This document shows positions 8,691 to 63,239 of a stretch of DNA of 64,000 bases, piece by piece. Origin of the DNA: Ginsengibacter hankyongi (GTDB lineage Bacteria; Bacteroidota; Bacteroidia; Chitinophagales; Chitinophagaceae); the NCBI RefSeq assembly GCF_008710285.1, contig NZ_VYQF01000001.1:1311501-1375500 (forward strand), in the 5' to 3' direction. The notes under the pieces are model-generated. The model was given only the letters and a program-made list of their open reading frames with translations, made no database searches and was not told where the DNA came from. Each line of letters begins with the position of its first letter. Position 1 is the stretch's first letter. The position numbers and the translations under genes were made by a program.

Positions 8691-9458
8691 CTAATTTTTT
8701 AAAAGGTTACTAATTACAGCCTGAGAGGGGTAACTAAGGAGTACAGCCTTATGTTTACCATTAAACACGAAAAAACTCCCAACAGCCGCGGCGGAGGCAC
8801 CCCCTTCGGTTAAGACTTCCCTTATATGTCCGAGGTTTCCGCAACCACCGCAAGCTATTACTGGAACTGTTGACACAGAAGTTACCATTTTAATCAAATC
8901 AATATTGTACCCTTTCATTACTCCGTCATTATTGACATCATTAATCAGGATTTCACCAGCGCCGTTACTTTCCAACCACTTTACACTTTCAGGAATTGAT
9001 AAATCAGTAACAATAGACTTTGTTGAATTATCCACTATGCGGTAACTGCCCAGAAAATTTCGAAAGATATTTAAAGAAACAATAAGGCTTTGGCTTCCGT
9101 ATAACTTATTTATTTCGTGGAGAAGCTTAGGATTCTTAAAGACTGCAGTATTTAAACAAATTTTCTCAATACCGATACTAAATAATCGCTTGGCTTCATC
9201 CAGGGAAGTTATTCCCCCACCATAGGTTAATGGAGAGAAAGAGATACTTGATATTTTTTGAATCAATTCAAAATTAGGTTTCCTGCCTTCCGCAGAGGCT
9301 GTGATATCGAGAATCATTAACTCATCAATCATTTTTACATTAAATATCTTGACAATATTCAATGGATCTCCGAGGTAGACCGGGTGCTTAAAGTTCATTG
9401 TTTTGACAAAGCCCTTTCCTTTTAACAGCAAACAGGGAATAATTCTTTTTTTTAGCAT
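8691..9458 (-). CDS. hisF: HisF2/AglZ-type acetamidino modification protein
   Basis: A 255-residue (beta-alpha)8 barrel related to the HisF cyclase. The chosen ATG (9456-9458) gives the standard start MLKKRIIPCLL and lies 1 bp beyond the hisH stop. The two catalytic aspartates of true HisF are absent: the position after IIPCL is Leu instead of Asp (D11 in Thermotoga HisF), and the second (D130) falls in LIVSLNIFRN where Asn stands. This is the pattern of the HisF2/WbuZ branch, which is thought to channel ammonia from HisH to WbpG rather than make histidine. The histidine pathway genes are not nearby, in line with that. Confidence 0.88.
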   Translation of the reverse strand: MLKKRIIPCLLLKGKGFVKTMNFKHPVYLGDPLNIVKIFNVKMIDELMILDITASAEGRKPNFELIQKISSISFSPLTYGGGITSLDEAKRLFSIGIEKICLNTAVFKNPKLLHEINKLYGSQSLIVSLNIFRNFLGSYRIVDNSTKSIVTDLSIPESVKWLESNGAGEILINDVNNDGVMKGYNIDLIKMVTSVSTVPVIACGGCGNLGHIREVLTEGGASAAAVGSFFVFNGKHKAVLLSYPSQAVISNLLKN

Positions 9459-9459
9459 G

Positions 9460-10077
9460 TTAAATTTCCGAAAACGATTTAAACAAATTAACTCCAAACA
9501 TATGACTTCGTTCAGGATGAAACTGAACACCTAATTTGTTCCCGTTTTTTATTGCAACCGTAAAATCATATCCGTAACTAGCGGTAGCAATAGAATATTT
9601 TTCTGCCCCTGTTATATGGTAAGAATGTGCAAAATAGTATTTAAGCTCTTGGTCAATCATTTTGAAAAGGCTAGTTCCGCTATTGACGGGGGTAATATCA
9701 TTCCAACCCATATGTGGAATCTTTTGCCGGCCATGAAGAGTGCCATCAAATTTGAATTTGATGCATTTTGCTTCAAACCAGCCTAAGCCTGGTAATTCAC
9801 CTTCCGCGCTCCCTTGTGTCATCATTTGCATTCCCAAACAAATACCAAGAATTGGAGTTGCCTCGTTGTTTACTTTTTCGTCTATAAGTTCCTTAAGTCC
9901 GGATTTATTAAATAAGGTAATAGCCTGATCAAACGAACCAACTCCCGGTAATATTAATTTCGAAGCATCCCTAATTTCTGAATAATCCTTCGTTACAATA
10001 GCAGGAATTCCAATATAATTCATCATATTCAAGATAGAGCCTACGTTTCCAACACCATAATCAATAATTGCGATCAT
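9460..10077 (-). CDS. hisH: HisH2/WbuY-type glutamine amidotransferase subunit
   Basis: A 205-residue class I glutamine amidotransferase. The nucleophile is C80 in ILGICLGMQMM, and the His/Glu of the triad are H187 and E189 in GVQFHPERS; the oxyanion segment PGVGSFDQA is also present. It hydrolyses glutamine and should feed ammonia through the HisF2 barrel to the WbpG-type amidotransferase next door. The three genes are packed with 1- and 11-bp gaps. The alternative, a genuine histidine-biosynthesis HisH, is unlikely given the partner's lost catalytic residues and the polysaccharide context. Confidence 0.9.
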   Translation of the reverse strand: MIAIIDYGVGNVGSILNMMNYIGIPAIVTKDYSEIRDASKLILPGVGSFDQAITLFNKSGLKELIDEKVNNEATPILGICLGMQMMTQGSAEGELPGLGWFEAKCIKFKFDGTLHGRQKIPHMGWNDITPVNSGTSLFKMIDQELKYYFAHSYHITGAEKYSIATASYGYDFTVAIKNGNKLGVQFHPERSHMFGVNLFKSFSEI

Positions 10078-52772: not shown

Positions 52773-55163
52773 TCACTTCTCTTTCTCCAATATTTCAAAC
52801 TCCCTGCTAATGCTTTCCCCGTTTTCATCTACAATAGTAAGTAAATGTTTGCCGGGAGAAGGGCTTGCAGCCATTTGATGAAAATTTATTGTGGTACCAA
52901 TATACTCATCATCGAGATGCCAGAAAATTTTACTTCCCGGTTTCCGGTTAGCGGCAGTGAAAATTGTTTTTCCACGTTTCCCATCTATTTCCAATGGCAC
53001 GTAAATTTTAGCGCCTTGTACGGGATATATTAATTCCATTTGCTTTCCTGTTTCGGCAAACTCACAGCCAGGCTTAAACGAAGGCAGTGGTTTATAATCA
53101 TGGTTCTTCTGTTTGTAATACCATTCCATCGCAGGCGTTAACACAAACCAGCTTTTGTGAATCATATTGGAAGGAGATTCACAACTTTCATTTACCCGGT
53201 AAATGCCTGTTGGGTCTAAATGAATCAATTTATGATAGGGGCATAACGGTGACCTGTACCCGTTTTTTGGTACCATAATCGTATCGACATCCGGACAATC
53301 AATATTTGCCCTAAAGCCACTTTCACGGCATACCGGAATAAAAGCAAAATTATTTGCAGGTTTTGAAAACCATTTTGATGAAGGCAATTCACGAAAAATA
53401 TCAAACATAATCGGAGCTGAAGTCTGAACACCAATCAGCCCGGCCCTTCCTTCCCCATCTGTATTGCCCGCCCACACAGCAACAACATATTTTGGCGTAA
53501 CGCCTATTGCCCACGCATCCCTGAAGCCAAAGCTCGTGCCTGTTTTCCAGGCTATTTGTTGTGATGAAGAAAATTCCTGCCACAATCCTTCCTCACCGGG
53601 ACGCATCACTTCTTCCATTGCCTGGAAAGCAAACCATATAGACGTGGCATCTAAAGAATTAATAACATCATCCGCAGATTTTTTTATCGGCTTATTACTT
53701 ACAAGATAATTGGGCGCATGAAAATCTTCTTTTAAAGCAACTCCATTATTTTTTTTCTGATGATTTAAAGTACGTGCCATACCTGCATAAATTCCCGCAA
53801 GATCCCACATGGTTATTTCACCACCTCCAAGGATTAATGAAAGGCCATAATTATCTGCCGGTTTATTGAGTGTTGTAATTCCAAGTTGTTTCAGCAAATC
53901 ATAAAATCGTTGATATTTATATCGCTGCAATAATTTCACCGCAGGAATATTTAAAGAGCGTGCCAGCGCAATAGACGCAGGAACAGCGCCATCATAACCC
54001 AGGTCAAAATTTTGCGGAGCATATCCTCCTATCTGCGTTGGAATATCAGGAACAAGCGAGTTGGGTAAAATCATTCCATCACTAAACATTGCTGCATACA
54101 ATATCGGCTTTAAAGCGCTGCCGGGGCTTCTTGGCGCTTTTATAACGTCTACATCACTTTCAAGCTCTGCATTTTTGGTATCATAAATATTCCCAACATA
54201 AGCTAATACATTTCCTGTTTCAACATCCAGCACCAATGCACAGGCATTATTAATTCCATTTCCTTTTAAAACATTGTGATGCTGATTTAAAATATCAATT
54301 ACATTTTTTTGAAGGTTGATATCAATTGTTGTTTTAGATCTTGATGGCAAACTTTTATTAACCTGCGCTTCTTGTTTAAATCTTTGCAACAGATGCGGAG
54401 CAAGTTGCGGTAAAGAAACCGGCTCTCCGGGAAGCGGTTCTAATTTCGAAAGATAACAGGTTGATTGATCAATAATTTTATTCGTCAGCAATTTATCCAG
54501 CAATGCATTCCTTTTTTTTAAGAGCACCTGCCTGTTTTTACCGGGATGTACTAACGCTGGTGCATTTGGCAAAACAGCCAACGATGCCATTTCACCCCAG
54601 CTTAATTTTTCAGGGCTGCGCCCAAAATATCTCCACGATGCAGCATCCAGCCCAACTACGTTACTTCCGAATGGCGCTTCGGATGCATACAACGCCATGA
54701 TTTGTTTTTTGGAATAGCTGCATTCCAATCTTACAGATTGAATACTCTCAATAATTTTTTCCCAGATGTTTCTTTTAGTTTCATGGCGGCTTAAGCGTAT
54801 AACCTGCATCGTTAGTGTGCTGCCGCCTTGCACCACTTCCTTGCTTCTCACATTCCTTAAAGTTGCTCTTGAAAATGCAATTATATCAACTCCGGGATGG
54901 CTATAAAATCTTTTATCTTCAAATGTGGTGATGCATTTTATAAATTTATCCGGCACATTTTCATCGTAAGGAAAACGCCATTGCCCATCCGCAGCAATAG
55001 ATGCATTCAAGAGATTGCCATCTTTATCCTCAATAACAAAACTTGTGGGAGCATTAAATAATTTTGAAGGAAGACAAAAGTAAAACCAGGTGTATAAACC
55101 CACAGCTATCAGAAAGAAAAACTTTATTTTAAGAGGGATTTTTGACATGGAGCGAGCAAACAT
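52773..55163 (-). CDS. pbpC: Penicillin-binding protein 1C (transglycosylase/transpeptidase)
   Basis: A 796-residue class A PBP. After a short cytoplasmic part and one membrane anchor (about 12-30) comes the GT51 domain with ITTFEDKRFYSHPGVD (catalytic Glu) and VVQGGSTLTMQVIRL. The transpeptidase domain has S-A-L-K in PRSPGSALKP, S-L-N in ARSLNIP, and K-T-G in AWKTGTSFGF. A C-terminal BiPBP_C domain (from about 700) ends the protein. A second ATG five codons in (MSKIPLK) may be the real start. PBP1C is usually paired with a YfhM-type alpha-2-macroglobulin; here that gene is 2.4 kb away behind three other genes. Confidence 0.93.
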   Translation of the reverse strand: MFARSMSKIPLKIKFFFLIAVGLYTWFYFCLPSKLFNAPTSFVIEDKDGNLLNASIAADGQWRFPYDENVPDKFIKCITTFEDKRFYSHPGVDIIAFSRATLRNVRSKEVVQGGSTLTMQVIRLSRHETKRNIWEKIIESIQSVRLECSYSKKQIMALYASEAPFGSNVVGLDAASWRYFGRSPEKLSWGEMASLAVLPNAPALVHPGKNRQVLLKKRNALLDKLLTNKIIDQSTCYLSKLEPLPGEPVSLPQLAPHLLQRFKQEAQVNKSLPSRSKTTIDINLQKNVIDILNQHHNVLKGNGINNACALVLDVETGNVLAYVGNIYDTKNAELESDVDVIKAPRSPGSALKPILYAAMFSDGMILPNSLVPDIPTQIGGYAPQNFDLGYDGAVPASIALARSLNIPAVKLLQRYKYQRFYDLLKQLGITTLNKPADNYGLSLILGGGEITMWDLAGIYAGMARTLNHQKKNNGVALKEDFHAPNYLVSNKPIKKSADDVINSLDATSIWFAFQAMEEVMRPGEEGLWQEFSSSQQIAWKTGTSFGFRDAWAIGVTPKYVVAVWAGNTDGEGRAGLIGVQTSAPIMFDIFRELPSSKWFSKPANNFAFIPVCRESGFRANIDCPDVDTIMVPKNGYRSPLCPYHKLIHLDPTGIYRVNESCESPSNMIHKSWFVLTPAMEWYYKQKNHDYKPLPSFKPGCEFAETGKQMELIYPVQGAKIYVPLEIDGKRGKTIFTAANRKPGSKIFWHLDDEYIGTTINFHQMAASPSPGKHLLTIVDENGESISREFEILEKEK

Positions 55164-55204: not shown

Positions 55205-56254
55205 TTATTTTGGTTTCAGTTTTTCCTTTGCCATTATTAGTGCATGGTGCAGCTTTTGCTGCAACAATTTTTTAGATGGCAGACTTGTATAGTATTGGGC
55301 AACCCTTATATTGCCCTTATCCAACTCGAGGAGTTCTATATGCTCATCAGCTTTGTCCGCACACAAAATCAATCCTATTGGTGTGTTTTCATTTTCTTTC
55401 TTTTCATATTTAATTAGCCAATTAAGATATAATTCCATTTGCGATTTATAGGCAGTTTTAAATTTGCCCAACTTAAGGTCAATTGCAACCAATCTCTGTA
55501 ACTGCCTATTATAAAAAAGTAAATCTATATAGTAGTCTTCACCATCTACCTGTATTCTTTTTTGCCTTGCCAGGAAAGCAAAATCATTACCCAATTCAAT
55601 AATAAAACGCTGCAAGTCGGCAATGATTGACGTTTCAAGATCCTTTTCACTAAACGTGTCATGCAATCCCAAAAAATCAAGAAAATAAGGATCCCTGAAA
55701 AACAAATCAGGTGAAACAGGTTCATTATTGCTAAGTGCAGCAAGCTCTTTACGTATAAGTGATTCCGGGTTTTTTGAAAGTGCGGTACGTTCGTATAACA
55801 TGCTGTTTATTCTTTCTCTCAACTGGCGCACACTCCAATGTTCGCTTCTGCACAATTGAATATAAAATTCCCTTTGCAAATTGTCTTTTATGTAAATCAA
55901 TTCTTTTAAATGCGACCAGCTTAATTCTCCCGACAGTGTAGAGATTATTTTTTCTTTTGGAAAAATCTCTACAGTGTAGAGACAATTCCAAAGTTGTTGT
56001 TTACTCCATCCCCTGCCATACTCTCCGGTTAATTTTTTGGATAAATTATGAATAACCTGTTCCCCATAATCTGCTCTTTTATTATTAAGGATTTCACTTC
56101 TTATCATTTTCCCGATATTCCAATACAAGACAGTGAGGCGCTGATTTACGGCAACTGCAATTGATATTTTGCTTTCATTTATAAGCCGGCAAACCACAGC
56201 AAACAAATGCTTTGTATTTAATTGTGTATTTGTACTTTTTAGTTTAGGGTTCAT
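55205..56254 (-). CDS. YhcG-type PDDEXK nuclease (DUF1016)
   Basis: A 349-residue protein with two parts. The N-terminal DUF1016 domain (about 15-165) contains VLYWNIGKMI, GEQVIHNLSKKL and GRGWSKQQLWN. The C-terminal PDDEXK nuclease domain has YYIDLLFYN (D244) and the catalytic D-L-K in VAIDLKLGKF (D259, K261). The family is linked to defence islands, restriction systems and phage-derived genes; it is presumed to cut DNA. It is followed upstream by a decayed BRO-family gene and dinD, and lies between pbpC and the alpha-2-macroglobulin gene. Confidence 0.9.
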   Translation of the reverse strand: MNPKLKSTNTQLNTKHLFAVVCRLINESKISIAVAVNQRLTVLYWNIGKMIRSEILNNKRADYGEQVIHNLSKKLTGEYGRGWSKQQLWNCLYTVEIFPKEKIISTLSGELSWSHLKELIYIKDNLQREFYIQLCRSEHWSVRQLRERINSMLYERTALSKNPESLIRKELAALSNNEPVSPDLFFRDPYFLDFLGLHDTFSEKDLETSIIADLQRFIIELGNDFAFLARQKRIQVDGEDYYIDLLFYNRQLQRLVAIDLKLGKFKTAYKSQMELYLNWLIKYEKKENENTPIGLILCADKADEHIELLELDKGNIRVAQYYTSLPSKKLLQQKLHHALIMAKEKLKPK

Positions 56255-56304
56255 TTTTCGGCTTAAATGTAAAACAAAAATTATCTTATTTTACTTTAGT
56301 AGCT

Positions 56305-56473
56305 CATGCCTGCGTAATAACATCGATAAGCGTTGCAAATTGTTGTCCTTTTTTTACGCCCTGTTTTCCCATTCATCCGTTAGTTCTTTTCTAACCTCAA
56401 AGTAGCATGTTTCTTTCTCTGCAACCCAGTGGCTGCGAATTTTTTTACTTTCAAATAATTTGATGTTGCTCAC
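56305..56473 (-). pseudogene. Decayed BRO-N family gene (internal deletion and frameshift)
   Basis: From a GTG at 56471-56473 the frame reads MSNIKLFESKKIRSHW...EKETCYF, the usual first 25 residues of BRO-N/antirepressor-like proteins. It then jumps to EVRKELTDEWENR, which is the family's C-terminal segment, so some 200 codons are missing. A lost base then shifts the frame: a TAA ends the first frame at 56354, while the other frame continues as GVKKGQQFATLIDVITQA to a TGA at 56305, matching the family's end. The remnant sits between the YhcG nuclease and dinD. Confidence 0.8.
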
Positions 56474-56572
56474 AAAAATTACTGTTTGGAAATAAAATTT
56501 TGATTGAATTTTTTATATCATTCTAATTTCAGTCGTCGGCAAATTGACCATAACTCAAACCAAAGAATAGCT

Positions 56573-57412
56573 TCATTTCTTTTTCTTTACGTCTTTTATA
56601 ACTTTCTTTTCATCGTTTTCCAGCCTCCGCTGCACTTTCTTTAAATCCTCTGCACCAGGAAGTTGCTCAGGCTTTACGCTTCTTTCAATCAGCATTTTTC
56701 GCACGGCCAGGTTGTTTTCAATATGTTCTTTTGAAATAGTATTTTGACCTTTCAAATCTTTTTCAGTTACATTATGGCTGGTAAGTTCAGTTGCAAAATC
56801 CTTTGCTTTAATAATAAGCGTGGGTAAGAAATCCGCTAAAGGCCTGGTACGCGGGACTTGTAATTTCACCTTCATGTCGCCAGTAGTAAATCCTCCAAAC
56901 AGCGCCTTGTCGCCTTTGCTGCGGATAATAGAAAACCCTCTGTCGTCTACACCTCTTTCGTAAATAATACCGGAAAGCTTCTTTTCCGATTTTGATAATT
57001 TTTCTCTTGCAGTTACTCTTGCAATGTCCAATAGCCTTTGTTCAATAATTTCCTGCCTGCGGGTTTGTACAGCAAAATAAGTTTGGGCAAAAGCAATTTC
57101 AGCTTTGGCCGCATTGCCATTTTGAGCGATAAGATAACAGGCATACCTTGTAAGCGCAATGTCTTCAATTTCACGTTGGGCCCCTTTAGCAAGATTTATC
57201 ATTTTGGTAGTGTCAACAAAATGATGGGAAACCTCCCCGCCACTGTTTTTGCAGGCTTCCTTTGCTTTATCAATTACTTTTAAAAAATTACGCCAGTCAG
57301 TATAATTAAAAATGTTTTGTAATTCTCTTGCACTCCAGCACTCAATACCTTTATAAATGTAACATGCATGCTCAAACTGTTCAAATAGCTGATGTGTTTG
57401 TTCTTTTTTCAT
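56573..57412 (-). CDS. dinD: DNA damage-inducible protein D (DinD), BRO-N domain
   Basis: A 279-residue DinD. The N-terminal BRO-N domain (about 10-120) reads ECWSARELQNIFNYTDWRNFL; the middle has the family's IEDIALTRYACYLIAQNGN and QTYFAVQTRRQE, and the C-terminal part GGFTTGDMKVKLQVP and KEHIENNLAVRKMLIERSVKPEQLP. Full length. In E. coli the homologue is SOS-induced and inhibits RecA filaments. The ATG at 57410-57412 is preferred over a TTG two codons up. No LexA-type operator was recognised. Located between the alpha-2-macroglobulin gene and the BRO remnant. Confidence 0.92.
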   Translation of the reverse strand: MKKEQTHQLFEQFEHACYIYKGIECWSARELQNIFNYTDWRNFLKVIDKAKEACKNSGGEVSHHFVDTTKMINLAKGAQREIEDIALTRYACYLIAQNGNAAKAEIAFAQTYFAVQTRRQEIIEQRLLDIARVTAREKLSKSEKKLSGIIYERGVDDRGFSIIRSKGDKALFGGFTTGDMKVKLQVPRTRPLADFLPTLIIKAKDFATELTSHNVTEKDLKGQNTISKEHIENNLAVRKMLIERSVKPEQLPGAEDLKKVQRRLENDEKKVIKDVKKKK

Positions 57413-57524
57413 CTTCAAAATGTTCGAGACTAAACCTGCGATAAATTAAATACTTGCATCCTAAACTTGATTGAAGACTCAATTTATAGAGTCAGTGCAA
57501 CCCTTTAACGAATTTCGTACTTCT

Positions 57525-60500
57525 TCACTCCTTCACCACCTCCACCCACTTCCCATTCACTCCTGCATTAATGGTATTATCATACATCGCTCCGCAATAG
57601 GTTCCAGGTAAAAAATATTTACCGAGGTAAGCAGCATTCAGTTGTATATAATAAGTGAGGGCCTCATTTTCAGTTATATTGAAATACGTGTACACCCTGT
57701 CGTCTCTTATATCCTGGTAATCGAATGGGGAAGATTTAAAAGCGCTTTCAACATCCTGTGTGCGGGTGTTTAAAATTTCCCAGCCGCTGGGGAAAATCTG
57801 CGTAAGCGCCATCCGCTCATAATAACCACGCCTGCCGGGATTTCTAACCGTAACCTTTGCAATAAAATCGGCGCCCTGCATCATTTTAGTTACATCAATT
57901 GGTTTCAAATCTCTTGTGAGATAAGTTACATTTAATCCCAGGATAGCGGGATTATTATGCACCTGCAGGTTTTCGCCGGTTAAAGGCTGCCCTTCTGAAA
58001 TGATTTGAACATACAACGTATTACTGCCTTTATTCGTTACCGTTATATTAGCTGCGCCTTTGCTTATATCCAGCGGCAACTGCGTTACGTAAGAAGATGA
58101 ATTGATATTGATGGCTTTTCCGTTTACAGAGCCACCTGCCATTATTTTTGAACCTGAAGGATTTTTGCCACAATATTTTGCAATTGCAATTAATGAATAA
58201 GCGGTTGTTTGCGTGCTATACCAGGTATCTTCCGAAAGTTTTGCAGCAATGGTATTCACAAGATCCGATGCTAAAGTGCGTCTGCCCAGCAACGTTAGTG
58301 TTTCTAAAACCATGGCTTCATCTCTAAGATCAGAACCATAGGTAATGCCCGGTGAATGGTTGGTATTAAAAGTCAACGGCAGCCCGCTGATCAACTGCAA
58401 TGCGGTATTGTCTTCGCCCGCCAGCTTGTACGCCGCAGCCAGCCTCCATTTCGCTTCGGGCGAAATATATTTAAATTCTTTCAGCCGGTTCATAGCGCCC
58501 AACTCCGGTGACTTTGCGAGCGCTAGCAAATAGAGCCGGTAGGCCTGCGTAAGATCGCCGCCATAGAAGTTATTGGTAGTGGGCATCCATGAAGTTGCCC
58601 TGTTGCGCTCAAATAGCTTCCATTCCTGCATTAATTGTTCACCCACGGTATACCCGTTTTGCTGTGCTTCCAGCAAGAAATTGCCGGCGTAGTTTGTGCC
58701 CCACTCATCACTTTCGGGTTCGCCGGGCCAATAGCTGAAACCACCATCGTTGCGTTGAAAATTGCGAATGGCCTCAATCCCGGCTTTTATATTTTTATCA
58801 ATCTGCGCTTTACGGTAATCTGATAAATCGGTCAGCTGGTTTAATACCAACTGTGGAAATACAGCAGAGGTTGTTTGTTCAATACATCCATGCGGATATT
58901 CAATAAGATAGTCCAGTCTTTTTTCAAGATTCATTGCCGGAATGCCTGATATTTCAAGTACTGCTTTACTGGTTGAGAGAGTTCCTATCGGCGTTGCACT
59001 GGTAGTCCACTGCCCGCCTCCGGACAATATCTTCGAGCTAACCCTTGTTACAAAAGGATTGGGATTTCGCACATCAAGCTCCACATCATAATCTGCTTTT
59101 TCACCGCCGCCGGCAGCAACAAGTTTTACTTTTCCTATGCCAACGTTGGGCTTTACTTTCACATCAAAATAAATCATTTGTTCGCCGGTTTCGGTAAAAT
59201 TCACTTCCTGCGAATTGGCGCCGGTTACCTCCAGGAAAGGGTTTGTTTGCAACGTAACATGTACATTTTTAATTTTATTATCCATTGCAAAAACGGTTAC
59301 CGGAATTTTTATCGTTTCTTCCGGCCCGAGCACTCTTGGCAAAGTAGCCAGCAACATCAACGGTTTTTTTACACCAACCGCCTTTTCAGCGCTTCCATAA
59401 CTGCCACGGTTAGCCGCAATTACCATCACCCTGACTGAGCCGATATATTGCGGCAATGTAAAATTATGCGTTGCCTTCTCCCCTTTACCAAGATGAAAAG
59501 GGCCAAGGTATTCTACAACGGGCTTAAATCGGTTTGCTTTTTTAGGTTGTATGGGGCCGTTGTTCCCTTCATCGCCGCCAATGGTAAGAATGCGCTCCAG
59601 GTTACCACCCCAAGCGCCTATCACGTAATCATACAAATCCCAGCTCTTTACTCCCAATGCTTCTTTCGCATAAAAATATTCATGCGGGTCTGGTGTTTTA
59701 AACCTGGTAAGGTCAAGCAATCCTTCATCAACAATGGCAATACTGTACGTCATTTCCTTTCCATTTTGCTCACTAACGGTAACGCTTGCCTGCTTTTCCG
59801 GCTGTATCGTTCCGGCCATATTTATAACCGGTTTTAAAAAAGTATTTTTATCCTCAATCATTACCGGCAACACTCCATACATTCTTATTGGCAAATCGTT
59901 TATCGTTTGCGCATGTGGCTGCAGCAGGCTTACATTTACATATATATTGGGCGACATGGTTTCCTCAGCCTTAAATTTCACTAACGTTTGGCCCTGTTCA
60001 GTCTCTACCCAGAAAGAACGGAGTACTTTACTTCCGGATTCGATACTGACCAATCCACGGCCGCCTTTGCTGCTCGGGATGGTAAGTGTAACCTCATCCC
60101 CCACATTGTATTTTTCTTTATCTGCTGTAAATGATAACATGGAGGCTGCAGTGGGATCATCAGTATTATTGCGGCTTTGCCAGTCGGGGCCGTCAACATA
60201 TACCACATCACCAGTGATATGCCCGCTTTTAATATCTTTCACTAAAACAAGATATCTTCCCCAATCATTTTCCCCAACATTGAAGTTCCATTTGCCGGCA
60301 CCGTTAGTTAAATGAACGGTTTCTGCTTTAATTAATTTGTTGTATTTATCCTGGGTAAAATTGCTGAGGTTATCGCCGCTTGCATCCCACCACCAGCGCC
60401 ATTGAATTTTATAAAACTGCACTTCCACATCCTGTATGCCTGTAAGAGGATTTCCACGATTGTCTACATCAACAATCTGCACAGTATGCGTTTTCCCTGT

Positions 60501-61307
60501 TAATAAAAATCCCCAGGGCTTTTCACCTTCCGGCATTTTTACACCTACATAACTGGAGTATGGGCTGTAAGGAATCGTAACATTATCCACACTAAAACTT
60601 CCGCCGGGTTCAAAAACTTTTATCGCGAGGTTAGCATTTAATATTCCAGGTGCATTGTCATCCGTTTCAAAGTTTGGCTTTACGGTTGCCTTTCCCTCAT
60701 CATCCAATGTTCCATCAAAAATTGTTTTGGTTTGCGTAGCGTATTTCGTTGTTGGATCATAAAAATCGTATCCTGCAAATTTTGAAAATGCTGTTCGGTT
60801 TATAAAAAGAGACGCATCAATTTTCGCCTTTAAATTTTTTGCAGTAGCGCCAAATAACCAATGTGCAGAGAGCGACCCTGCGTTTGAAGCATTTTTACCA
60901 AGCAAAGGATTTGTTCCAAAGTCAAGATCAATTTTTAACCGGTTAGGCATTACCGACTCCACTTTAATTCTTTTTTCAAATGTGGCGCCACCTACTTTAA
61001 TTTTGGCCAGCCAGTTGCCTGTGGGTGCATTCTCCAGGGTTTTTGTTTTAAAAACATTAAAGCCTTCATTGGCATTTGTTTGAATTATTTGTTTGTATAA
61101 CTGTCCCTGTGGCGTGTACAATTCAAACTGCACAGGATGATCTTTAGGAAGTTTACCATCCTTATCTTCCACGATGCAATTGATATACATGGAATCGCCG
61201 GGGCGCCAAACACCTCTTTCGCCAAATACAAATCCTTTAATACCGTTCTTTACCTCTTCACCGGAAATATCAAAGCGACTAAGCGGAAGGCTGCTGCCAT
61301 CGTCCAC
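57525..61307 (-). CDS. Alpha-2-macroglobulin family protein, C-terminal part (frameshifted)
   Basis: The open frame (1260 codons) covers the second part of a YfhM-type bacterial alpha-2-macroglobulin, a periplasmic protease trap thought to work with PBP1C. It starts in mid-domain (VDDGSSLPLSRFDISGE), exactly where the N-terminal part stops. FVFGERGVWRPGDSMYI is the MG domain hallmark. The thioester motif G-C-I-E-Q is intact at about residue 808 (codons near 58875-58886), followed by the helical thioester domain and the receptor-binding-like end. No independent start codon context is visible, so alone it would lack a signal peptide. Confidence 0.9.
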   Translation of the reverse strand: MDDGSSLPLSRFDISGEEVKNGIKGFVFGERGVWRPGDSMYINCIVEDKDGKLPKDHPVQFELYTPQGQLYKQIIQTNANEGFNVFKTKTLENAPTGNWLAKIKVGGATFEKRIKVESVMPNRLKIDLDFGTNPLLGKNASNAGSLSAHWLFGATAKNLKAKIDASLFINRTAFSKFAGYDFYDPTTKYATQTKTIFDGTLDDEGKATVKPNFETDDNAPGILNANLAIKVFEPGGSFSVDNVTIPYSPYSSYVGVKMPEGEKPWGFLLTGKTHTVQIVDVDNRGNPLTGIQDVEVQFYKIQWRWWWDASGDNLSNFTQDKYNKLIKAETVHLTNGAGKWNFNVGENDWGRYLVLVKDIKSGHITGDVVYVDGPDWQSRNNTDDPTAASMLSFTADKEKYNVGDEVTLTIPSSKGGRGLVSIESGSKVLRSFWVETEQGQTLVKFKAEETMSPNIYVNVSLLQPHAQTINDLPIRMYGVLPVMIEDKNTFLKPVINMAGTIQPEKQASVTVSEQNGKEMTYSIAIVDEGLLDLTRFKTPDPHEYFYAKEALGVKSWDLYDYVIGAWGGNLERILTIGGDEGNNGPIQPKKANRFKPVVEYLGPFHLGKGEKATHNFTLPQYIGSVRVMVIAANRGSYGSAEKAVGVKKPLMLLATLPRVLGPEETIKIPVTVFAMDNKIKNVHVTLQTNPFLEVTGANSQEVNFTETGEQMIYFDVKVKPNVGIGKVKLVAAGGGEKADYDVELDVRNPNPFVTRVSSKILSGGGQWTTSATPIGTLSTSKAVLEISGIPAMNLEKRLDYLIEYPHGCIEQTTSAVFPQLVLNQLTDLSDYRKAQIDKNIKAGIEAIRNFQRNDGGFSYWPGEPESDEWGTNYAGNFLLEAQQNGYTVGEQLMQEWKLFERNRATSWMPTTNNFYGGDLTQAYRLYLLALAKSPELGAMNRLKEFKYISPEAKWRLAAAYKLAGEDNTALQLISGLPLTFNTNHSPGITYGSDLRDEAMVLETLTLLGRRTLASDLVNTIAAKLSEDTWYSTQTTAYSLIAIAKYCGKNPSGSKIMAGGSVNGKAININSSSYVTQLPLDISKGAANITVTNKGSNTLYVQIISEGQPLTGENLQVHNNPAILGLNVTYLTRDLKPIDVTKMMQGADFIAKVTVRNPGRRGYYERMALTQIFPSGWEILNTRTQDVESAFKSSPFDYQDIRDDRVYTYFNITENEALTYYIQLNAAYLGKYFLPGTYCGAMYDNTINAGVNGKWVEVVKE

Positions 61308-63120
61308 TTAAATATCCTTTTTCATCATTCAGTTTGGCTATAATAAGATAGGGTTTCCGATTGCAATCAAACGTTGCAAAGCCATTATTATCACTGTTTA
61401 CTTTTGCAATTATTTGTTGCTGGTAATCGAGCACCTGCAGTTCCACATTGGGAAGCGGATTGGTTGTCAAAATATCTGACACCGCAATTGTAATCGTATT
61501 GCTGGCCCCACGTTTAGCGGTAAGTCCAATATTGGAGGCGATAATGTTCCTTGTTGCCCAGCGATCTTTATTGTAATAAGATTTTGAGCAGGGATTATCA
61601 CGCTGTTTCCAATTATAACCATAAGGGTAATAACTGTTATACCGCTTCCAGAATTCATCGTTATCATCTACGGTATTTTGTTGATCGTTGTCATAATAAT
61701 CGTTATAATTATCTTCATCTTCATCATCTTTATTGGCTGAAGAATCAGCATGGCAGGTATATAAAGAATAATCGGGCCTGAAGCCGATGGTAACCCTGTA
61801 AATGGCGCCCGGTTCGGTTTTCAGGAACTTATCAATATCTAAAGAAAAGTTTTGCTTTTTATGCAAGTCAAGCGTTTTATCATCATCAAGTCGTAGCGTT
61901 TTTTGTACCACGGGCACGGCTACACGACGCAAATCTTCTTCACCATTTAAATCATTTCCCTGCAAAAACTGCGGAATATTATTCTCGTAAATTTTAATGA
62001 TACTGATGTCGACTGCATTTAAATTAACCGCTTCAAAAGGCAAAACGAGATGGCCGGACTTAGGAAGTATATTTCCCCTGCCCTGTATCTTTACGGAGGG
62101 CAACCGGTTTTCAAAAAATACGTTTGCAGCATAACCTTTCTGCAAGGTATCGCCCCAGGTATTTTTTATTCCCGGGTTTACGCTAATGTTATAATCTCCA
62201 TTGAAATTATCGCCGGTATATAGCTTTACTTCGCTTCCATTTATCGTATAAGTTATTTCCGGTTGATTACTTATCGTTATTAGGCCAGTAAGCTCCTGGC
62301 CGGTTGCAATGGGATCGCTAAACTGAACGGAGGCATATTGCTCAGCATCGTTCATTGCCATAATATTCAGCACCTTAAAATCTCCGACAGCAGGTACTTC
62401 TAAAGATTTGCTGTTTACGTTATCAATGCCTAATGGCTTGCCATTCCAGCTAAGCTGCATTTGTTGCGCCGTAGTTTCCCGTTGTATTGAAGTAACGGTA
62501 AAATTATGCGTCTTGGCGGCAGCGTTATGTTGCCAGCTAATTTGTAAATTCTTATCATTTTCTGTAGCGGTCAATATTTTTTCAACCAATGAATTGTCTT
62601 CAATATCTGCGGTTTCAATTTCACCTAACAACATCATTTTATCTTTCTGGTCATTACTTCTTAAGCCAAAACCCTGTACGGTAAATGCAGGTTTAATGGT
62701 CTTAATATTAAAATTAAATTCTTCGTACTTAGCAGGAACCTTGGTTACTTTACCAAGATTAAAAGTTACCTGGTATAATTTATCAGGAACCAGGTTTCCA
62801 TCGGGCTTAAATTCAATCGTTCGTGCATCGAGCCAAATTGCTTTTCCTTTTACAGAGGGTGAAAAACTAAAAAGATCTTTATCAATTGGCTCTCCAACAG
62901 TGTGCGTGGTGGAAGCGTCCGCGGCCAGTTTAATTCTTATTAAAGTTGTTTTAGAAACAATTCCTGAGGTGTAAGCGTCAATGTATTGGCTGAAGGATGG
63001 ATCAACCTCTACCAGTTTATTTTTTTTATTGCAAGAAATAAATATTGTAAAAAGAGAAATGAAGCAGAAAAAAATAAGGGAACGATTTTTCTTATTGACA
63101 ATAAAGAAAAGGACTTTCAT
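61279..63120 (-). CDS. Alpha-2-macroglobulin family lipoprotein, N-terminal part (frameshifted)
   Basis: A 613-residue frame with a lipoprotein signal peptide (Cys30 in TIFISC, from the ATG at 63118-63120) and the N-terminal MG domains of a YfhM-type alpha-2-macroglobulin. An Asp/Asn/Tyr-rich low-complexity insert lies around residues 465-510. The frame reads through PYLIIAKLNDEKGYL and then diverges into a short out-of-frame tail ending at a TAG at 61279. Correct sequence continues in the +1 frame at GTGGACGATGGC, so the two frames are one gene of about 1870 codons broken near 61305-61310 by one extra or two missing bases. Confidence 0.88.
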   Translation of the reverse strand: MKVLFFIVNKKNRSLIFFCFISLFTIFISCNKKNKLVEVDPSFSQYIDAYTSGIVSKTTLIRIKLAADASTTHTVGEPIDKDLFSFSPSVKGKAIWLDARTIEFKPDGNLVPDKLYQVTFNLGKVTKVPAKYEEFNFNIKTIKPAFTVQGFGLRSNDQKDKMMLLGEIETADIEDNSLVEKILTATENDKNLQISWQHNAAAKTHNFTVTSIQRETTAQQMQLSWNGKPLGIDNVNSKSLEVPAVGDFKVLNIMAMNDAEQYASVQFSDPIATGQELTGLITISNQPEITYTINGSEVKLYTGDNFNGDYNISVNPGIKNTWGDTLQKGYAANVFFENRLPSVKIQGRGNILPKSGHLVLPFEAVNLNAVDISIIKIYENNIPQFLQGNDLNGEEDLRRVAVPVVQKTLRLDDDKTLDLHKKQNFSLDIDKFLKTEPGAIYRVTIGFRPDYSLYTCHADSSANKDDEDEDNYNDYYDNDQQNTVDDNDEFWKRYNSYYPYGYNWKQRDNPCSKSYYNKDRWATRNIIASNIGLTAKRGASNTITIAVSDILTTNPLPNVELQVLDYQQQIIAKVNSDNNGFATFDCNRKPYLIIAKLNDEKGYLSGRWQQPSA

Positions 63121-63239
63121 TAGCAAGATGATTTATGATAAAAGTCGCAAATTTTTATCAGGTAAACCAATTGCTTTAATATGAATTGAAAGAATTTAAC
63201 CAGGCCGGAATATTAAAAATGAAATATGCCGCTATAGAT

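What the first reader, a model, noticed from the sequence alone, without database searches (positions are those of the whole stretch)
61270..61320. Frameshift splits the giant alpha-2-macroglobulin gene
Two overlapping frames are both clearly one protein: the first reads to KLNDEKGYL, the second resumes at VDDGSSLPLSRFD. The junction is TATTTAAGTGGAC; one base fewer or two more A residues would restore the frame. It may be a real inactivating mutation, a phase-variable site, or a sequencing error. If real, the thioester domain would not be exported.
Basis: seen in the sequence. Interest (0 to 1): 0.6.

Follow-up and report, generated by a model that had tools for sequence, protein, structure and literature searches.

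The report
Private frameshift in bacterial macroglobulin gene
A conserved gene for a large protease-trapping surface protein is broken in two in this one genome, while all 93 relatives examined carry it whole, so this is an ordinary one-strain mutation or a sequencing error and not a new kind of gene.

Summary
On the minus strand, ORF A (63126..61279, 615 aa) and ORF B (61307..57525, 1260 aa) are two pieces of one bacterial alpha-2-macroglobulin in different frames, overlapping by 29 nt. All 93 distinct relatives (53-73% identical) read through the site in one frame; full-length copies have about 1850-1900 codons. The site reads [GSA]-[YF]-L-(K/R)-[LIV]-D-[DEH]-[GA]. The window has one base (61308) where relatives have the K/R codon, a net loss of two bases seen only here. 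There is no long homopolymer, tandem repeat or unusual RNA fold at the break, and no relative shares the split, so phase variation and programmed frameshifting are unsupported. Neither piece shows relaxed constraint and the thioester motif GCIEQ is intact. The break is therefore either very recent or a sequencing/assembly error; no reads were available to decide. A survey of about 250 homologous genes in 850 kb of this genome found one other such frameshift, against none in a control genome. If real, the strain makes a truncated anchored fragment and no exported bait/thioester part. A private pseudogene or an artefact; interest is low.

The parts
61279..63126 (-). ORF A (615 aa): N-terminal piece of the type I bacterial alpha-2-macroglobulin: lipoprotein-like signal, Big_5, bMG2, most of bMG3; last nine residues out of frame
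   Evidence: lipobox-like LFTIFISC read by eye
57525..61307 (-). ORF B (1260 aa, first start GTG): rest of the same protein: MG2, bMG5, bMG6, bait region, A2M, thioester domain with GCIEQ, bMG10; no signal peptide seen
61305..61311 (-). frame break: TTA-A-GTG; the single base 61308 stands where relatives have one Lys/Arg codon
61279..61307 (-). 29-nt overlap of the two frames, ending in TAG of frame A
52773..55163 (-). intact pbpC (penicillin-binding protein 1C), the usual operon partner of type I bacterial A2M
   Evidence: TIGR02073, 692 bits

Best explanation
A private, very recent small deletion (net loss of two bases) has inactivated a type I (thioester) bacterial alpha-2-macroglobulin of the yfhM-pbpC kind in this one Chitinophagaceae genome. 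If the sequence is correct, translation yields a truncated, membrane-anchored fragment of about 600 aa (MG1 to most of MG3). The bait-region, thioester and C-terminal domains would be left unmade, or at most made in the cytoplasm by weak re-initiation at the overlapping GTG. The strain would then lack this protease trap while keeping pbpC. Shown: the split, its privacy, the size of the loss, the intact remainder. Inferred: that it is real in the living strain, and its consequences.
For: All 93 distinct relatives, down to 53% identity, are in one frame through the site, with K (88) or R (5) where the window has a single base. Full-length relatives have single frames of 1851-1902 aa, including the same-genus copy L003 (1887 aa, 73% identical), against 1260 aa here. 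The break is not at any of the gene's longer homopolymers and is a two-base change, which is not the usual platform miscount (platform behaviour is my own knowledge). A single lesion is typical of real young pseudogenes: 346 of 378 in Salmonella had one (PMC2916853). Two genes lie between this gene and pbpC that are found there in no relative with enough flank, so the locus has been disturbed in this lineage.
Against: Nothing shows that the mutation exists in the organism: no reads, no second isolate and no independent assembly were available. Both pieces have normal branch lengths compared with the same-genus copy L003 (N part 0.283 vs 0.310; C part 0.205 vs 0.178). Unique changes at invariant columns are 0 and 2, against 2 and 4 in L003, and GCIEQ is kept. 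So any inactivation is too recent to have left a trace. Antonov et al. expected such BLAST-validated singletons to be mainly sequencing errors (PMC3711429).
Confidence: 0.55

Rival explanations
1. Sequencing or assembly error: the strain's gene is intact and the two-base loss exists only in the draft (33 contigs).
For: No relaxed constraint in either piece and only one lesion in 5.6 kb. A second isolated frameshift at an A-rich stretch of another conserved small gene in the same contig (about C1:1539580), with none in the control genome (2 of about 256 versus 0 of about 247 matched places; not significant). Antonov et al. expect validated singletons to be mostly sequencing errors (PMC3711429).
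Against: The break is not at a long homopolymer although the gene holds 14 runs of six or more A/T or five or more G/C. A net two-base loss is an unusual consensus error (own knowledge). Two lesions per about 250 genes is also compatible with ordinary pseudogene load.
Confidence: 0.38
2. A functional arrangement: programmed +1 frameshifting, or a split two-protein A2M made by translational coupling through the 29-nt overlap.
For: ORF B opens exactly at a GTG inside ORF A's end, so re-initiation is conceivable. Both pieces show normal constraint.
Against: No relative shares it, and functional frame transitions are expected to be conserved in clusters (PMC3711429). There is no known slippery motif by inspection and no unusual RNA fold (z = -0.12). 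ORF B has no visible export signal and the cut falls inside the bMG3 domain.
Confidence: 0.04
3. Phase-variable on/off switch by slipped-strand mispairing.
For: A two-base change could in principle arise by slippage in a very short run.
Against: No homopolymer of 6 or more and no tandem repeat at the site. None of the 93 relatives is in an off state.
Confidence: 0.02

Closest known systems
Type I bacterial alpha-2-macroglobulin, E. coli YfhM/ECAM and Salmonella Sa-A2M (PDB 4ziq, 5a42, 4rtd, 4u48)
   Same: ORF B matches YfhM from the domain after MG3 through the thioester domain (E about 1e-76) and ORF A matches a short N-terminal stretch of it weakly; CXEQ motif GCIEQ; neighbour of pbpC
   Different: the gene is broken by a frameshift in bMG3; two genes (DinD/Bro-N and YhcG-type nuclease) lie between it and pbpC
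Intact Chitinophagaceae and Sphingobacteriaceae orthologues (e.g. L003, L014, L043, L044)
   Same: 53-73% identical over ORF B with the same site motif
   Different: one uninterrupted frame of about 1850-1900 codons
Singleton frameshifted genes in prokaryotic genomes (Antonov et al. 2013, PMC3711429)
   Same: frame transition confirmed by protein homology, not shared by relatives, no recoding motif
   Different: nothing of note

Membership tests
Type I bacterial alpha-2-macroglobulin (YfhM/Sa-A2M) | macroglobulin domains, bait region, thioester domain in bacterial order | tested here: met
   Pfam bMG3, MG2, bMG5, bMG6, A2M_BRD, A2M, TED, bMG10 across the two ORFs
Type I bacterial alpha-2-macroglobulin (YfhM/Sa-A2M) | CXEQ thioester motif | tested here: met
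   GCIEQ in ORF B
Type I bacterial alpha-2-macroglobulin (YfhM/Sa-A2M) | linked to pbpC | tested here: met
   pbpC 2.4 kb downstream here, directly next in many relatives; PMC5764988
Type I bacterial alpha-2-macroglobulin (YfhM/Sa-A2M) | single exported lipoprotein chain | tested here: not met
   chain split by frameshift, second piece without visible signal; so a broken copy, not a working member, if the sequence is right
Programmed ribosomal frameshifting | frame transition conserved in relatives | tested here: not met
   0 of 93 relatives
Programmed ribosomal frameshifting | slippery site and stimulatory RNA structure | tested here: not met
   no known motif by inspection; fold z = -0.12
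Phase-variable gene (slipped-strand) | homopolymer or short tandem repeat at the break | tested here: not met
   none at the break
Recent pseudogene | lesion present in the living strain | not testable with these tools
   no reads and no second isolate available

The most novel reading that the evidence does not exclude
The split gene is functional: the lineage makes a full-length or two-chain macroglobulin by frame switching or coupled re-initiation over the 29-nt overlap.
Probability: 0.03. Interest if true: 0.5.

Novelty: already known. Interest (0 to 1): 0.1.

Why it matters
Little beyond annotation: the two ORFs should be annotated as one frameshifted gene, not as two proteins. If the lesion is real, the strain is a natural mutant lacking its only detected thioester-domain macroglobulin while retaining pbpC.

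Tried and rejected
Phase variation: no tract. Programmed frameshift: not conserved, no fold signal. Two ancestral genes fused in relatives: rejected, because all relatives including the same-genus copy are one frame and the cut is inside bMG3. Old pseudogene: rejected by normal branch lengths. The frameshift survey also listed many in-frame stops. The two high-identity cases checked were stops upstream of the true start codon, and most others are probably antisense shadow ORFs, so these were set aside.

Full report
What was claimed.

Check of the observation. The minus strand carries ORF A 63126..61279 (615 aa) and ORF B 61307..57525 (1260 aa), overlapping by 29 nt in different frames. ORF A reads ...AKLNDEKGYL, then nine out-of-frame residues and TAG. 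ORF B begins at GTG directly after an in-frame TAA. Pfam finds Big_5, bMG2 and bMG3 in A, and MG2, bMG5, bMG6, the bait region, A2M, the thioester domain and bMG10 in B. The bMG3 match runs into the out-of-frame tail of A, so the cut falls near the end of bMG3. PDB sequences place ORF B on E. coli YfhM and Salmonella A2M (E about 1e-76) and ORF A weakly on their N-terminal part.

Comparison with relatives. The window lies in a 5.5-Mb draft genome of 33 contigs. Among genomes of the same genus and family, every close relative whose gene is complete in the assembly has a single frame of 1851-1902 aa. A second collection gave 80 loci, mostly Chitinophagaceae and Mucilaginibacter or Pedobacter relatives, some of them the same genomes again. 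After removing duplicates, 93 distinct relatives were read at the site. All 93 continue in frame for at least 100 codons upstream; in 68 the whole N-terminal part is held and open, and in the other 25 the frame is open to the end of the held DNA. The site is [GSA]-[YF]-L-(K 88, R 5)-[LIV]-D-[DEH]-[GA]. The window has one base at 61308 where these have the K/R codon. The lesion is therefore a net loss of two bases, private to this genome.

Is it functional? A programmed frameshift or split gene should recur in relatives; none does. Antonov et al. (PMC3711429) treat unshared, homology-confirmed frame transitions as sequencing errors or recent indels, and look for recoding, phase variation and coupling among conserved clusters. 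There is no long homopolymer or tandem repeat at the break and the local RNA fold is no better than shuffles (z = -0.12). ORF B has no visible export signal, so even coupled re-initiation at GTG 61307 would give a cytoplasmic product.

How old is it? Trees of the two parts (32 sequences) give the window ordinary tip lengths beside the same-genus copy L003: 0.283 vs 0.310 for the N part and 0.205 vs 0.178 for the C part. Unique changes at otherwise invariant columns are 0 and 2, against 2 and 4 in L003, and GCIEQ is intact. Nothing has decayed, so the lesion is very recent or not real. One lesion per gene is normal for young pseudogenes (346 of 378 in Salmonella, PMC2916853).

Mutation or error? 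I compared 850 kb of this contig with 1.6 Mb of a one-contig genome of the same family. Of about 256 matched places in this genome, two show a frameshift: this gene, and a small secreted-looking gene near C1:1539580 at an A-rich stretch, whose relatives are mostly intact. The reverse comparison found none in about 247. The difference is not significant, and the rate fits both ordinary pseudogenes and a modest draft error rate. The position (not at any of the gene's 14 longer homopolymers) and the size (two bases) lean towards a real mutation. The lack of decay fits a recent mutation and an error equally. I put a real recent mutation at 0.55 and an error at 0.38.

Consequence if real (inference). 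Type I bacterial A2Ms are inner-membrane-anchored periplasmic protease traps encoded with PBP1c (PMC5764988, PMC4498604). Here an anchored fragment without bait and thioester domains would remain. pbpC (52773-55163) is intact. The only other A2M-type gene detected in the genome is a 2057-aa protein with MG2, A2M and bMG10 domains but no detected thioester domain, so it would not obviously replace it.

Verdict. This is an ordinary private frameshift or draft error in a well-known family. It deserves a pseudogene/frameshift note in the annotation and has low scientific interest.

Noticed in passing
window 55205-57418 (-): Two genes, a YhcG/DUF1016 PDDEXK nuclease (PADLOC candidate PDC-S02) and a DinD-like Bro-N protein (PDC-S13), sit between the macroglobulin gene and pbpC; in many relatives pbpC follows directly, and no relative with enough flank has these two genes there.
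   Followed up: partly
L147 (G000:C1:1530001-1550000), about 9310-9754 in the locus: A second conserved gene of the same genome (about 159 aa in relatives, secreted-looking) is split between two frames at an A-rich stretch while most relatives are intact.
   Followed up: partly
L141 7205-13378 (G000:C1 about 1417205-1423378): A second, intact 2057-aa macroglobulin-family ORF with MG2, A2M and bMG10 but no detected thioester domain, also present in other genomes of the genus.
   Followed up: partly
L037 (G095:C30): A relative's partial macroglobulin copy at a contig end carries one in-frame TGA within the match; not examined further.
   Followed up: no
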